Below are positions 40,941 to 46,324 of a stretch of DNA of 64,000 nt, one piece after another. Position 1 is the stretch's first letter. Every line of letters begins with the position of its first letter. Source of the DNA: an uncultured Actinomycetes bacterium. GTDB lineage: Bacteria; Actinomycetota; Actinomycetes; Nanopelagicales; Nanopelagicaceae. Below the pieces are notes generated by a model. That model saw only the letters and a program-made list of their open reading frames with translations, had not been told where the DNA came from and did not search any database. Where the stretch lies: the NCBI GenBank assembly GCA_903834515.1, contig CAILJM010000019.1:1-64000 (forward strand), in the 5' to 3' direction. The position numbers were made by a program, and so were the translations under genes.

Positions 40941-41807
40941 CTACACCAAGAGTGCTATTGCCAAAGTTGTTGATAACAAGAGATGGAGCCGTCCGACTTT
41001 TCCGAGGATCGGAATTAAATCAGCGCCGGTGATTCCAGCCCATACTCCTCGAGCAATCTGAATTGTGATGGGGAGCAGTAAAAGCGTCGCAAGGGTCCAA
41101 GGTGTGATGAGGGTGGCGACCACTGCTGCAAGGTGAGCACCAGCGAGTAATCCTATGAATGCAATCCGAGCATTTCTGTCGCCGAGGCGAACTGCCATTG
41201 TTCGCTTCTCGACCAGAGCATCTTTAGGTAAATCTCGGAGATTATTTATTGCCAGAATTGCACAAGCGAGCGCCCCTACAGGAAGTGAGACCAGGAAAGA
41301 GTTCCAGCTAAGTGAATGCGATTGGACGACATAACTTCCCATTGTTGCGACCAGACCAAAGAAGAGAAAGACCGAGATTTCCCCGAGCCCCTTATAACCG
41401 TATGGATTCTTTCCGCCGGTATATCGCCAGGCAGCGATAATTGAAATGGCGCCAACGATGACGAGCCACCAAGAAGTTCTGGAGCTAAGAGCTAATCCAA
41501 TAATTGCAGCGAAAGCAAAGGTGAGTATCGCAGCGTTCTTTACCGCCTTAGGTGAAGCAAGGCCACTTCCAACCAGGCGAATGGGACCAACACGGACTGC
41601 ATCAGTTCCTCGGATTCCATCGGAGTAATCATTTGCATAGTTCACGCCGATTTGTAGAGCCAAGCTAACCGTAAGTGCCAAGAGCGCATTGAGAATATTG
41701 ATGGGTGCGTGGTCGGAATGTCTAAGCGCCGTTCCAACCAGAACTGGCGCAATAGCAGCTGGAAGAGTTTTTGGACGGGCTCCGGCTATCCACTTATTAG
41801 TAGGCAT
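40941..41807 (-). CDS. menA: 1,4-Dihydroxy-2-naphthoate polyprenyltransferase
   Basis: The 288-residue UbiA-family membrane enzyme attaches the polyprenyl tail in menaquinone synthesis. NYANDYSDGIRGTDAVRVG is the first prenyl-diphosphate motif, in the form typical of MenA, and NNLRDLPKDALVEKRTMAV is the second. About eight membrane helices are visible. Its ATG overlaps the menE stop (TGATG), so the two are coupled. Confidence 0.94.
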   Translation of the reverse strand: MPTNKWIAGARPKTLPAAIAPVLVGTALRHSDHAPINILNALLALTVSLALQIGVNYANDYSDGIRGTDAVRVGPIRLVGSGLASPKAVKNAAILTFAFAAIIGLALSSRTSWWLVIVGAISIIAAWRYTGGKNPYGYKGLGEISVFLFFGLVATMGSYVVQSHSLSWNSFLVSLPVGALACAILAINNLRDLPKDALVEKRTMAVRLGDRNARIAFIGLLAGAHLAAVVATLITPWTLATLLLLPITIQIARGVWAGITGADLIPILGKVGRLHLLLSTTLAIALLV

Positions 41808-42853
41808 CAGGCAAGTCTGCCAAAGATTTCCATTAACTTCTTGATATCTGGTTTGCCGATAGCTGTGAGAGGCAACTCGATATTTGCGAGAAAGTGCTTT
41901 GGCGAGCAGTGGGCACCAAACTGCTCGCGCAATTTCTCCCGGATGAGTCGTTTATCAATCTCTCCATCACTGGCAATAGCGAGTGCGCTACCCCATTCTG
42001 AGTCCGGGATTCCAACTGCAATAAAGCGTTGATCTGAATCGCGGTTGAGGAATTCAGAGACGGTTCCGAGCGAAATCTTCTCACCACCGCTGATTATTTG
42101 GTCATCGATTCTGCCCAAGACTTCGAGCTTGCCGCTTTCGTATTTCCCAGAGTCGGAGGTTCTGAAGAAATCATCGCCAAATGGTTTTTCGCCAAGATAG
42201 CCGATCGCCTTCATAGGGCCATTGAGCTCAATTACTTCGTCGTTAATACGCACTTCTACTCCTGGCAGTGGCTCGTTGTTATAAATGCATCCACCGCACA
42301 TCTCGGTCATGCCGTAGGTCGTAATGACATTAATGCCCGCCATTTCGGCATCGTTACGAAGTTCATTGGAAGTAGCGGCACCGCCAACCAGGACCGCCTT
42401 TGCATTTTGAAGGTGTTCAAGAAGTTGAGTATCTCCGGTCAGCGCTCGATGAAGCTGGGTCGGGACAATCGAAGTAAAAGTTGCATCTTCAGCGACTGAA
42501 AGTACTTTCGTGCCGAGCGCGATCGCTCTGACTAAAACATTGACGCCAGCGATATGGGTGGTGGGGAGCAGTAGCGACCAACTATCGCCTGTTGTGGCTC
42601 CGAGATAAGTGTGAGCCGCATCTGCAGAAGCTCTTACTGAGTGAGCCGACAGGGCAACAGACTTTGGATTTCCAGTTGAGCCACTGGTGGTCAGAACGAG
42701 CCCGCACTCTGGATCTACTTCGTGAAAGGGTGATTGCGAGAAAGCGAGTGCTGGACCATCGCCATTGAGGGCTTGTGAGAGTGCATCCATCTGTTGTGTG
42801 ATGGGCCACTGCGCTCGCACGCCTACGAGAGGTCTCCGTGACGAAATATCCAT
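41807..42853 (-). CDS. menE: o-Succinylbenzoate-CoA ligase
   Basis: The 348-residue acyl-adenylating enzyme is short for the superfamily but normal for actinobacterial MenE. The AMP-binding loop is TTSGSTGNPKSVALS (about 53-67). TTYGMTEMCGG is the mid motif and LEVLGRIDDQIISGGEKI the hinge region. The catalytic lysine region ending LPLTAIGKPDIKKL is near the C-terminus. It is divergent from menB across only 20 bases. Confidence 0.92.
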   Translation of the reverse strand: MDISSRRPLVGVRAQWPITQQMDALSQALNGDGPALAFSQSPFHEVDPECGLVLTTSGSTGNPKSVALSAHSVRASADAAHTYLGATTGDSWSLLLPTTHIAGVNVLVRAIALGTKVLSVAEDATFTSIVPTQLHRALTGDTQLLEHLQNAKAVLVGGAATSNELRNDAEMAGINVITTYGMTEMCGGCIYNNEPLPGVEVRINDEVIELNGPMKAIGYLGEKPFGDDFFRTSDSGKYESGKLEVLGRIDDQIISGGEKISLGTVSEFLNRDSDQRFIAVGIPDSEWGSALAIASDGEIDKRLIREKLREQFGAHCSPKHFLANIELPLTAIGKPDIKKLMEIFGRLA

Positions 42854-42861
42854 GATGACCG

Positions 42862-42868
42862 TAGGCTA
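42862..42868. promoter_or_regulatory. Shared bidirectional -10 element TAGGCTA between menE and menB
   Basis: Read on the plus strand, TAGGCT (42862-42867) ends six bases before the menB ATG. Read on the minus strand, TAGCCT (42868-42863) ends nine bases before the menE ATG. The near-palindromic heptamer can serve both -10 roles in a 20-base spacer, so both transcripts would be leaderless or nearly so. Confidence 0.55.
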
Positions 42869-42873
42869 TCGGC

Positions 42874-43752
42874 ATGAGCAAGCCGATCAAGCGCGAACCA
42901 GGCTCCCGAACCATCCCGTCATGGGTGACAGGTGAGGGCGGCGAAGGATTCACCGATATTACGTATGAAGTTGCCGAAGGAATGGCGAAGATAACGATCA
43001 ATCGGCCAGAGGTGCGCAACGCATTTCGCCCACAAACGCTCTTCGAGTTAGAGCGGGCCTTTGGCTTAGCTCGTGATAACGATCAAGTTGGCGTGATCAT
43101 CTTTACCGGAGCTGGAAGCGAGGCGTTCTGTTCTGGCGGTGATATCAACGTAAGAGGCGATGATGGCTATCTCGGCGATGATGGTTTAGCTAAGAAAGGT
43201 ATCGGTCGTCTTAATGTTCTAGATCTTCAAATTCAAATTCGCCGCTTACCGAAACCAGTTGTTGCAATGGTTGCTGGCTGGGCTATCGGAGGAGGACACG
43301 TCCTCCATGTTGTCTGTGATCTTACGATCGCTGCAGAGAATGCAAAATTTGGACAGACCGGACCCATGGTTGGTTCATTCGATGGCGGATATGGGGCAGG
43401 ACTTCTCGCCGCGCATGTCGGCCAAAAGAAGGCACGCGAAATCTGGTTCTTATGTCGTCAATACGATGCCGCCGAAGCGCTCGATATGGGACTTGTGAAT
43501 ACCGTAGTTCCGGTCTCTGAACTAGAAGCAGAGACTGTCTCTTGGTGTCGCGAAATGTTACGCCACTCTCCAATGGCGCTACGCCTTCTCAAAGCGGGAT
43601 TAAATGCGGCCGATGATGGACTTGCCGGGGTACAACAGCTCGCCGGCGATGCGACCCTTCTCTTCTACATGTCAGAAGAAGGGCAAGAAGGCCGGAACGC
43701 ATACCAGGAGAAGCGCGAACCGAACTTTAGTAAGTTCCCAAAGCGTCCTTAA
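42874..43752 (+). CDS. menB: 1,4-Dihydroxy-2-naphthoyl-CoA synthase
   Basis: The 292-residue crotonase-family enzyme closes the naphthoquinone ring. [15 protein letters not shown] is the MenB-type oxyanion loop, and [18 protein letters not shown] is the specific active-site stretch. The C-terminus [20 protein letters not shown] is diagnostic. It is followed by menC after 14 bases. Confidence 0.96.
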
Positions 43753-43766
43753 ATATTTATGCCACT

Positions 43767-44750
43767 ATGAATTTTCCTCATAACATCTTTCGAGATTTCA
43801 CGGTTCTCTCAATTCCTCTCAAAAACAGATTTCGCGGAATTGATTATCGAGAGGTTGCGATCTTTAATGGTGATGAAGGTTGGAGCGAATTCTCGCCATT
43901 TCTTGAGTATCAACCGCTAGAAGCATCAACCTGGTTGAAAGCCTCGCTAGAAGCGGCTTATCGACCATGGCCAAAGAGATATCGAGAGCTAATCCCCATT
44001 AATGCCACATTGCCCGCAGTGCATCCCGATGAAGTTCCCGAGATTCTTAATCGTTTTCATGGTTGCACAACTGTCAAAATAAAAGTGAGCGATTTTGAAA
44101 TCGGGGCCCAGTTAGTAGAAGCAACTTTGGATTACCTCCCAGAAGCGAAAATCCGATTAGATGTTAACGAGGGTTGGACGTTGGAAGAGGCTCTGCTTAA
44201 TCTCTATGACTATAACCTGAGATTCGGAAATGTCTTTGAATATATTGAACAACCTTGTAAGTCTATGGATGACTTAAAGAGACTCAAGCGCGAGACACCT
44301 TTCAAGATCGCAGCGGATGAGTCAATCCGAAAGAATCTCAACTCTGAGATGGAGATTCTCAATAGTTATGCAGATGTTGCGATTCTCAAATGGGCACCGG
44401 TAGGTGGAATTGAGGCAGCACATGATTTGGCGAGCCGTATCGGCCTTCCCGTCGTCATCTCAAGTGCCTTGGAAACAGGAATTGGAATTTCCCAAAGTTT
44501 GGCACTTGCATCTTCATTTCCCAAACTCGAATATGCCTGTGGGTTGGGAACAGTTTCGCTCTTTGAATCTGATATTTGCGAGCCAGCGCTCATCCCACAG
44601 AATGGTCAATTAGAAGTTAAGAAGGCGGAGCCAGTGCCAGCCCTCTTATCAAAGTATCGTGCTTCAACAGAGCGCGTAGAGTGGTGGAGTAATCGCATCT
44701 CTGAAATTTGGGAGATGAAAGAATTTCGAGAGGGGAGTGATTGGGAATGA
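43767..44750 (+). CDS. menC: o-Succinylbenzoate synthase
   Basis: The 327-residue enolase-superfamily enzyme dehydrates SHCHC. TVKIKVSDFE carries the first catalytic lysine. The metal ligands are in RLDVNEGW, YIEQPC and AADESI, and ILKWAPVGG contains the second lysine. It overlaps menD by ATGA. Confidence 0.93.
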   Translation: MNFPHNIFRDFTVLSIPLKNRFRGIDYREVAIFNGDEGWSEFSPFLEYQPLEASTWLKASLEAAYRPWPKRYRELIPINATLPAVHPDEVPEILNRFHGCTTVKIKVSDFEIGAQLVEATLDYLPEAKIRLDVNEGWTLEEALLNLYDYNLRFGNVFEYIEQPCKSMDDLKRLKRETPFKIAADESIRKNLNSEMEILNSYADVAILKWAPVGGIEAAHDLASRIGLPVVISSALETGIGISQSLALASSFPKLEYACGLGTVSLFESDICEPALIPQNGQLEVKKAEPVPALLSKYRASTERVEWWSNRISEIWEMKEFREGSDWE

Positions 44751-46324
44751 GTATCAGTGCAACGAAACTCGCACGCCAAACTATCCGCGAACTTCTTGAA
44801 CTTGGTATTTGTGACTTTGTAATATCTCCTGGATCTAGGAATGCACCGCTTTCGATCGCCGTGTATGAAGCAGCCGAACGTGGTCTCGCTGATCTTCATG
44901 TAAGAATCGACGAGCGCGGTGCGGGTTTTTATGCTCTCGGGGTTGCAAAAGTGATTCAACAATATGTCGTTGTCATATGCACCAGTGGAACCGCCGTCGC
45001 AAATTATCACCCTTCAGCGCTTGAGGCTTTTCACTCCGATGTAAACGTTCTCTACTTGACTGCCGATCGGCCGGCTCGACTTCGAAATACCGGCGCTAAT
45101 CAGACAACCCTTCAGCCGGGACTGCTTGCACCCGTGGAGAGCTTTGATACCGCAACCCCTTTAGACCTTTCAGAGATCCTCATTGGCGGACCAGTTCACA
45201 TTAACTTGCAACTAGATGAACCCCTGATTGAAAAGGATGCCGCTGACTGGCTTTCAGGATTTACCTTGAAAGAGGTTCTCGCTGATTCCATTTCTAAAGA
45301 AACCCTTGAGGTGAATCCCTCAGGAGTGCTCATTGTTGGGCATGATCGCGCTGGATTTTCTGCCGAGCAAATTAATGAATTCGCTGACATCTTAGATTGG
45401 CCGGTGATCGCCGAAGATCCACTTTCAATCCAATCTTCGCTCCCTCATGCATCGATTTTTCTCGCTGATAGCGGTATTCGTGAAGCTTTACATGCGGATG
45501 AAGTCATCATTATTGGAAGAACAACCTTGTCTCGAAGCATAAATTCATTTATCAGTGAGGCGACTCGAAAGTTTGTGATAGATCCAAGAGTCGAATATAT
45601 AGATACCGATCGAGAAGCCGATCGAGTGTTTTCAACTATTCCACATGTAATAAAGCACGCTACGCCACAAGCTTGGGACCAATTATGGATCGATGCATCA
45701 TCATCAGCAGAATCTCTCTTTGAAGCTGGTCTACCCTGGTCTGAACAATTGGCCCTTCGTGTAATCACCTCAAACATCCCAGAAGATTGCGCACTCTTCG
45801 TTGGATCATCGAGACCGATCCGTGATATCGAAGCATGTTCGCTACCACAAGATTGCATTTCGGTATTTGCGAATCGAGGTCTTGCCGGAATCGATGGAAA
45901 CATTGCCACCGCTCTTGGGATAGCTTCACGATTTGAACGAGGCTATGCGATCCTTGGCGACATTACTTTTCTTCACGACATCTCTGCTTTGGTCAACACC
46001 ACTTCAGATAACCTGACAATTTTTCTTATTGATAATAATGGCGGAGGAATCTTCTCGACATTGCCTCAGGCATCAACACCAGGTTTCGAATCTCTCTTTG
46101 GTACCCCGCATAATTTGGATTTAGAGAGGGTCGTAAGCGGTTTTTCGGTATCAGTCCAGAAGGCGAAATCTGAAGCAGACTTAGTACAGGCAATTTCGGC
46201 CCGTCATGAAGGTTTGCACGTTGTGATTGTCGAAGTACCTACTCGAAACGAGAATGCTTTGGAGCTTTCAGAGTTGTATCAAAGGGTTGCTAAAGCGGTG
46301 CGCATTGGAATCAATTTAGCTTGA
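44747..46324 (+). CDS. menD: SEPHCHC synthase (ThDP-dependent)
   Basis: The 525-residue enzyme joins isochorismate and 2-oxoglutarate using thiamin diphosphate. FVISPGSRNAPLSIAVYEAA is the N-terminal signature, HVRIDERGAGFYALG follows, and IDNNGGGIFSTLPQ closes the ThDP/Mg site. The ATG at 44747 overlaps menC; a TTG six bases earlier is unlikely. The last 46 bases overlap the end of convergent menF. Confidence 0.94.
   Translation: MSISATKLARQTIRELLELGICDFVISPGSRNAPLSIAVYEAAERGLADLHVRIDERGAGFYALGVAKVIQQYVVVICTSGTAVANYHPSALEAFHSDVNVLYLTADRPARLRNTGANQTTLQPGLLAPVESFDTATPLDLSEILIGGPVHINLQLDEPLIEKDAADWLSGFTLKEVLADSISKETLEVNPSGVLIVGHDRAGFSAEQINEFADILDWPVIAEDPLSIQSSLPHASIFLADSGIREALHADEVIIIGRTTLSRSINSFISEATRKFVIDPRVEYIDTDREADRVFSTIPHVIKHATPQAWDQLWIDASSSAESLFEAGLPWSEQLALRVITSNIPEDCALFVGSSRPIRDIEACSLPQDCISVFANRGLAGIDGNIATALGIASRFERGYAILGDITFLHDISALVNTTSDNLTIFLIDNNGGGIFSTLPQASTPGFESLFGTPHNLDLERVVSGFSVSVQKAKSEADLVQAISARHEGLHVVIVEVPTRNENALELSELYQRVAKAVRIGINLA

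What the first reader, a model, noticed from the sequence alone, without database searches (positions are those of the whole stretch)
42854..42873. One heptamer, TAGGCTA, may be the -10 element for both menE and menB
The divergent menE and menB start codons are only 20 bases apart. TAGGCT on the plus strand sits six bases before menB, and its reverse TAGCCT sits nine bases before menE, sharing six of seven bases. Polymerase could bind in one direction at a time, forcing a balance between the ligase/prenyltransferase arm and the menB-C-D arm of one pathway.
Basis: partly seen in the sequence, partly recalled or inferred. Interest (0 to 1): 0.55.

Follow-up and report, generated by a model that had tools for sequence, protein, structure and literature searches.

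The report
Shared two-way promoter in menaquinone locus
In this freshwater actinobacterium seven bases between two start codons appear to act as the core promoter for genes running both ways, and relatives keep those bases almost unchanged, which suggests that such two-way promoters can be maintained by selection.

Summary
In detail: TAGGCTA (42862-42868) puts TAGGCT 6 bases before menB and, on the other strand, TAGCCT 9 bases before menE. The hexamers share five bases.

Comparison supports one -10 for both genes. In 109 of 109 Nanopelagicaceae genomes read (own included) TAGGCTA (95) or TAGGGTA (14) lies upstream of menB; in 103 the menE ATG is exactly 8 bases to its left. In the own genome TANNNT stands 6 bases before 66 of 351 ATGs, against 0-6 at each distance from 10 to 39: a leaderless signal. 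menB rows at 6-7 bases lack a Shine-Dalgarno-like motif (0 of 24); wider rows have one (76 of 79). In a second order 30 of 47 divergent pairs share TANNNTA beside menE, control patterns 1-2 of 47.

It is a bidirectional promoter of a known kind (predicted starts 18 bp apart, the usual spacing), unusual in its fusion with (near-)leaderless genes and its deep conservation. That competition forces a balance is untested; five E. coli examples showed little competition at basal activity. No RNA data were available.

The parts
42862..42868 (.). shared -10 heptamer TAGGCTA
   Evidence: sequence; 109 of 109 family genomes read carry TAGGCTA or TAGGGTA within 110 bases upstream of menB
42862..42867 (+). 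predicted -10 hexamer TAGGCT of menB, 6 bases before the ATG
   Evidence: TANNNT at this distance in 66 of 351 ATG sites of the own-genome sample; TAGGCT and TAGAGT are the commonest of 103 such hexamers, 10 copies each
42863..42868 (-). predicted -10 hexamer TAGCCT of menE, 9 bases before the ATG
   Evidence: distance exactly kept in 103 of 109 family genomes
42874..42874 (+). predicted menB transcription start = A of the start codon (leaderless); inferred
   Evidence: canonical distance from the -10; no Shine-Dalgarno-like motif in 24 of 24 close-spaced rows
42856..42856 (-). predicted menE transcription start (3-base leader); inferred
   Evidence: canonical distance; the base is a purine on the menE strand in 98 of 103 rows; 18 bp from 42874
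41807..42853 (-). menE-like o-succinylbenzoate-CoA ligase
   Evidence: best model NF005877, 239 bits, below its cut-off of 345
40941..41807 (-). menA, 1,4-dihydroxy-2-naphthoate polyprenyltransferase, overlapping the menE end by one base
   Evidence: NF004751, above cut-off
42874..43752 (+). menB, 1,4-dihydroxy-2-naphthoyl-CoA synthase
   Evidence: NF005637 and TIGR01929, above cut-off
43767..44750 (+). menC, o-succinylbenzoate synthase
   Evidence: NF002782, above cut-off
44741..46324 (+). menD, 2-succinyl-5-enolpyruvyl-6-hydroxy-3-cyclohexene-1-carboxylate synthase
   Evidence: TIGR00173, above cut-off

Best explanation
The menE/menB spacer is a bidirectional housekeeping-sigma promoter whose -10 elements for the two directions are the same seven bases read on opposite strands (TANNNTA). 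Polymerase bound one way starts menB-menC-menD at or next to the menB start codon (leaderless mRNA); bound the other way it starts menE-menA about three bases before the menE start codon. The predicted start sites are 18 bp apart. Shown: the sequence layout, its conservation and the genome-wide leaderless signal. Inferred: that both transcripts start there, and that the same sigma factor reads both. Not shown: any regulatory effect of the sharing.
For: Layout unique in the genome. TANNNT at 6 bases before ATG in 66/351 sites, at 7 in 18/351, 0-6 sites at each distance 10-39. 109/109 family genomes read carry the heptamer, 103/109 with the menE CAT 8 bases to its left; of the other six, four (L165-167, L169) have an in-frame menE GTG at hexamer distance 6, one (L146) an ATG at 8, one (L164) is unresolved. 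The spacing of menB changes (5 changes on a menE tree, at least 2 forced by well supported branches) while the heptamer's middle changes twice. Shine-Dalgarno-like motif before menB 0/24 close-spaced, 76/79 wider-spaced. 50 of 79 wide-spaced rows have no other TANNNT between heptamer and menB. Controls: the leaderless promoter of radA shows 8 different hexamers in 26 loci (mean identity of the middle bases 0.43), while the men heptamer is TAGGCTA in 25 of 25 of those genomes whose men spacer was read. Second order: TANNNTA next to menE in 30/47 divergent pairs, controls 1-2/47; 4 more share the TA core as ANNNTANNNT; of 8 rows scored as not divergent none shares.
Against: No transcript data. 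The menE distance of 9 is not in the genome's leaderless peak (5/351 at distance 9), so menE would have a short leader that is unusual here. 29 of 79 wide-spaced relatives have another TANNNT that could serve menB. 13 of 47 divergent pairs of the second order, and 8 of 8 divergent pairs of further families, do not share. Flanking bases (C at -1, G at 0, T and C at 8-9 in heptamer numbering) are also strongly kept in the family and are not explained by sharing alone. The count of spacing changes rests on a FastTree run with long-branch warnings.
Confidence: 0.85

Rival explanations
1. The heptamer is the -10 of menE only; menB is transcribed from another promoter and the plus-strand match is a by-product of the near-palindrome.
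For: The menE distance is nearly fixed across the family while the menB distance varies from 6 to 89; 29 of 79 wide-spaced rows have another TANNNT nearer menB.
Against: Exact leaderless spacing and absence of a Shine-Dalgarno-like motif in the close-spaced rows; 50 of 79 wide-spaced rows have no other TANNNT; the first T, needed only by the plus hexamer, is kept in 109 of 109.
Confidence: 0.08
2. The conserved block is mainly an operator for a regulator of menaquinone genes that happens to resemble a -10.
For: Bases flanking the heptamer are kept in the family, and the middle three bases are more constant than in the radA, ispH and upp promoters of the same genomes.
Against: In the second order the heptamer recurs with a flipped centre and, by eye, other flanks; seven bases are short for an operator; the distances to start codons fit -10 elements.
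Confidence: 0.05
3. One reading: mutually exclusive polymerase binding forces a balance between the menE-menA and menB-menC-menD arms.
For: Shared -10 elements cannot be occupied from both sides at once (stated in PMC12825309 introduction); long conservation of sharing.
Against: All five E. coli bidirectional promoters tested had too little basal activity to compete (PMC12825309). Lineages of the second order keep the divergent pair without sharing (13 of 47). No activity data here.
Confidence: 0.2
4. Conservation is only phylogenetic inertia or chance.
For: Family genomes are related, and counts are not independent.
Against: Several other spacer positions vary freely among the 57 distinct segments; control promoters in the same genomes turned over; control patterns give 1-2 of 47 in the second order.
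Confidence: 0.02

Closest known systems
Bidirectional promoters with a symmetric shared -10 element (Warman et al. 2021 Nat Microbiol, not held; known here through passages of PMC10268837 and sections of PMC12825309)
   Same: Shared -10 with reciprocal -11A/-7T pairs, predicted start sites 18 bp apart, T at -18 on both strands in the window (42856 and 42874), divergent mRNAs of functionally linked genes.
   Different: One gene is leaderless and the other nearly so, so the promoter fills the whole intergenic space; the shared heptamer is kept across a family and recurs in a second order.
Leaderless actinobacterial promoters with TANNNT about 12 bp upstream of the start codon (Zheng et al. 2011 PMC3160421; Cortes et al. 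2013 PMC3898074; passages read)
   Same: TANNNT at the leaderless distance from menB; no consistent -35 signal in the own-genome set (7 of 103 with TTGA/TGAC at a -35-like distance).
   Different: Here one element serves two opposite genes; menE has a predicted 3-base leader.
Closely juxtaposed divergent promoters of M. tuberculosis, e.g. prpD/Rv1129c both leaderless (PMC3898074 figure legend passage)
   Same: Divergent leaderless pair in an actinobacterium.
   Different: Whether that pair shares a -10 was not checked here.

Membership tests
Bidirectional promoter (Warman/Grainger definition) | Divergent transcription start sites 7-25 bp apart, most often 18 | not testable with these tools
   Predicted 18 bp (42856 and 42874) from -10 positions; no RNA data.
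Bidirectional promoter (Warman/Grainger definition) | -10 elements overlap so that -11A and -7T are reciprocally base paired | tested here: met
   42863 (A, -11 of menB) pairs with -7T of menE; 42867 (T, -7 of menB) pairs with -11A of menE.
Bidirectional promoter (Warman/Grainger definition) | T at -18 (helpful, not essential) | tested here: inconclusive
   Met on both strands in the window; for menB it is T in only 18 of 57 distinct family segments, C in 35.
Leaderless TANNNT promoter | TANNNT 6-7 bases before the start codon (menB) | tested here: met
   menB 6 bases; genome-wide peak at 6 (66/351) and 7 (18/351).
Leaderless TANNNT promoter | TANNNT 6-7 bases before the start codon (menE) | tested here: not met
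   menE distance is 9 in the window; menE is filed as near-leaderless, not leaderless. Distance 6 occurs in L165-167 and L169, and 6-8 in the 30 shared rows of the second order.
Leaderless TANNNT promoter | no Shine-Dalgarno motif before menB | tested here: met
   0 of 24 close-spaced rows, the window's among them.

The most novel reading that the evidence does not exclude
An ancient shared -10 heptamer has coupled the two arms of menaquinone synthesis in at least two actinobacterial orders, with polymerase orientation itself as the control point, so that sharing is selected for its coupling; some lineages changed from the 18-bp to the 23-bp mode of sharing and kept the overlap.
Probability: 0.2. 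Interest if true: 0.75.

Novelty: new variant of a known kind. Interest (0 to 1): 0.55.

Why it matters
Bidirectional promoters are known to be common, but how far they are kept by selection rather than being by-products of -10 symmetry is not settled in the papers I saw. A single heptamer present in 109 of 109 genomes read of a family, while three other promoters in the same genomes changed their middle bases, makes that question directly testable: each outer base has a predicted one-way or two-way effect.

Tried and rejected
Generic sigma-70 scan: no site, not informative for TANNNT promoters. A conserved -35 box: TTGA/TGAC at a -35-like distance in only 7 of 103 own-genome leaderless hexamers; not pursued. 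I first noted that menE is not divergent in genera g12 and g9; one search showed an in-frame GTG start at distance 6 (in g12 a TTG at 9 is also possible), and that reading was dropped. L164 (g11) keeps the heptamer but its menE start was not resolved. A scan for divergent open frames with leaderless -10 elements on both strands in 38% of the genome gave 14 pairs against 4, 3 and 1 for control hexamers; it could not pick up the men pair because menE is at distance 9. The upp pair (ANNNTANNNT) has its divergent form in 5 of 30 loci only, the own genome and four of its genus, so not every such pair is conserved. Paper searches listed no work on a shared -10 in menE/menB or on leaderless bidirectional promoters; they cover only the open library and I saw listings, so absence in print is not claimed.

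Rows dropped or not counted: L128 and L020 (too little upstream sequence); L002-L019, 18 named loci, all carrying the heptamer but left out of the count because some look like the same genomes; L376 (no menB match); L083 and L164 left out of the tree; duplicates L239, L240, L241, L245, L246 removed before the counts. The 109 genomes are the 30 best matches (own included) plus 79 of 80 picked by hand from the 188 of 201 with menB; genera g5, g6 and g14 were not read. For the second order 56 loci were given to the count and 55 read; 'not divergent' there means that no divergent menE was found in the stretch held, and some stretches end at a contig end (L388).

Full report
Observation. The spacer between the divergent menE and menB start codons is 42854-42873 and contains TAGGCTA at 42862-42868. 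Read to the right, TAGGCT is followed by six bases and the menB ATG. Read to the left, TAGCCT is followed by nine bases and the menE ATG. The hexamers overlap in five positions. The left arm is menE-menA (menE below its model's cut-off) and the right arm menB-menC-menD.

Where it is. Among the closest matches to MenB are contigs titled Nanopelagicus, Planktophila, Nanopelagicaceae and uncultured actinobacterium; the genome held is 1.48 Mb in 39 contigs.

Leaderless signal. In 565,504 bases of the genome (38%, and the window), at 351 ATG sites of genes with an upstream gap, TANNNT stands 6 bases before the ATG in 66 and 7 bases before in 18; at each distance from 10 to 39 there are 0 to 6. The genes were called by a simple codon-usage script, not by a gene finder. 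Among 103 such hexamers before ATG or GTG, TAGGCT and TAGAGT are the commonest with 10 each. menB therefore has the standard leaderless layout of this genome. menE, at 9, does not fall in the peak (5 of 351); with canonical spacing its transcript would start at 42856 with a three-base leader. That start is 18 bp from the menB start, the commonest spacing at bidirectional promoters (PMC10268837 passages; PMC12825309 introduction).

Family comparison. MenB was found in 188 of 201 family genomes. I read the upstream region in 109 of them, own included, from 14 of 17 genera. All 109 carry TAGGCTA (95) or TAGGGTA (14) within 110 bases of menB; in 103 the menE ATG is exactly 8 bases left of the heptamer. 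Of the other six, four have an in-frame menE GTG at hexamer distance 6, one an ATG at 8, one is unresolved. So the first T (used only by menB) and the last A (used only by menE) are present in all. The distance to menB is 6 in 12 genomes, 7 in 13, 8 in 3, 11 in 2, and 25-89 in 79. Of the 103 rows with menE at 8, those with menB at 6-7 have no Shine-Dalgarno-like motif (0 of 24) and the others nearly always do (76 of 79). On a menE tree of 107 rows (FastTree, with long-branch warnings) the close (up to 11) or wide state needs 5 changes, at least 2 forced by well supported branches, while the heptamer middle changes twice. So the start codon of menB moves, and its likely mode of translation with it, around a fixed promoter core. 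In 50 of 79 wide-spaced rows no other TANNNT lies between heptamer and menB; in 29 there is one, 18 of them in genus g15, so menB may have a second promoter there.

Control promoters. For radA, ispH and upp (named), 30 loci each were read. A leaderless hexamer is present in 26, 30 and 30; 8, 3 and 8 different hexamers are seen, with mean identity of the middle bases 0.43, 0.69 and 0.55. In those of the same genomes whose men spacer was read the heptamer is TAGGCTA in 25 of 25, 27 of 27 and 27 of 27. The men heptamer is thus more constant than these three promoters. Three is a small control set, and its loci are the nearest relatives only.

Second order. Twenty genomes of other families and two searches that returned the same order show that the divergent menE/menB pair is widespread. 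Of 55 genomes of that order read, 47 were scored divergent: 30 share TANNNTA next to menE (28 TAGCCTA, 2 TAGGGTA), 4 share the TA core as ANNNTANNNT, 13 do not share; of 8 not scored divergent none shares. Five control patterns in the same places give 1, 1, 2, 1 and 1 of 47. Of 10 genomes of further families, 8 divergent, none shares. Sharing is thus old or has arisen more than once, and is not universal. The middle bases are flipped relative to the window's family, so the centre base is not what is kept.

Others of the kind. The ANNNTANNNT layout between two ATGs at distance 6 occurs at two places in the whole genome and 0 times reversed, and 169 against 45 times in 121 family genomes (summed; no gene filter). 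Divergent open frames with leaderless -10 elements on both strands within 60 bases number 14 in 38% of the genome, controls 4, 3 and 1. The pair xseA/ispH (xseA: best model just below cut-off on a partial protein) has two back-to-back -10 elements one base apart; this layout is found in 14 of 30 family loci, from five genera, with changed middle bases.

Function. That two polymerases cannot bind a shared -10 at once is stated for the class (PMC12825309). That this balances the two arms is not shown: in five E. coli promoters basal activity was too low for competition. I put it at 0.2. A simpler reading is economy: in a small genome one core promoter serves both operons.

Verdict. Observation confirmed. 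Shared -10 supported at 0.85. Balance not shown. It is a bidirectional promoter of a known kind in an unusual form, fused with (near-)leaderless genes and deeply conserved.

Noticed in passing
L231:16907-16931 (G000 contig C6): xseA-like and ispH start codons are 25 bases apart with two opposite -10 elements ACTCTA-A-TAGGCT, each 6 bases from its ATG; the layout recurs in 14 of 30 family loci with changed middle bases.
   Followed up: partly
G000:C1:16561-16588 and G000:C4:12735-12762: Two divergent pairs whose leaderless -10 elements share only the central TA (AGTCTAGACT; ATAGTAGGCT, the latter at upp); the only exact matches to that layout in the genome.
   Followed up: partly
L005: A contig titled Bifidobacterium breve (MAG MaE-09apr19-18) carries a men locus whose spacer equals that of L004; the record name is probably wrong.
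   Followed up: no
L259, L260, L271, L276: In the second order four menE/menB pairs share the TA core as ANNNTANNNT instead of TANNNTA beside menE, i.e. the 23-bp instead of the 18-bp mode of sharing.
   Followed up: partly
window 42854-42873 and relatives: Bases next to the heptamer (C at -1 in 57 of 57 distinct segments, G at 0 in 51, T at 8 in 49, C at 9 in 52) are kept in the family but, by eye, not in the second order; unexplained.
   Followed up: no
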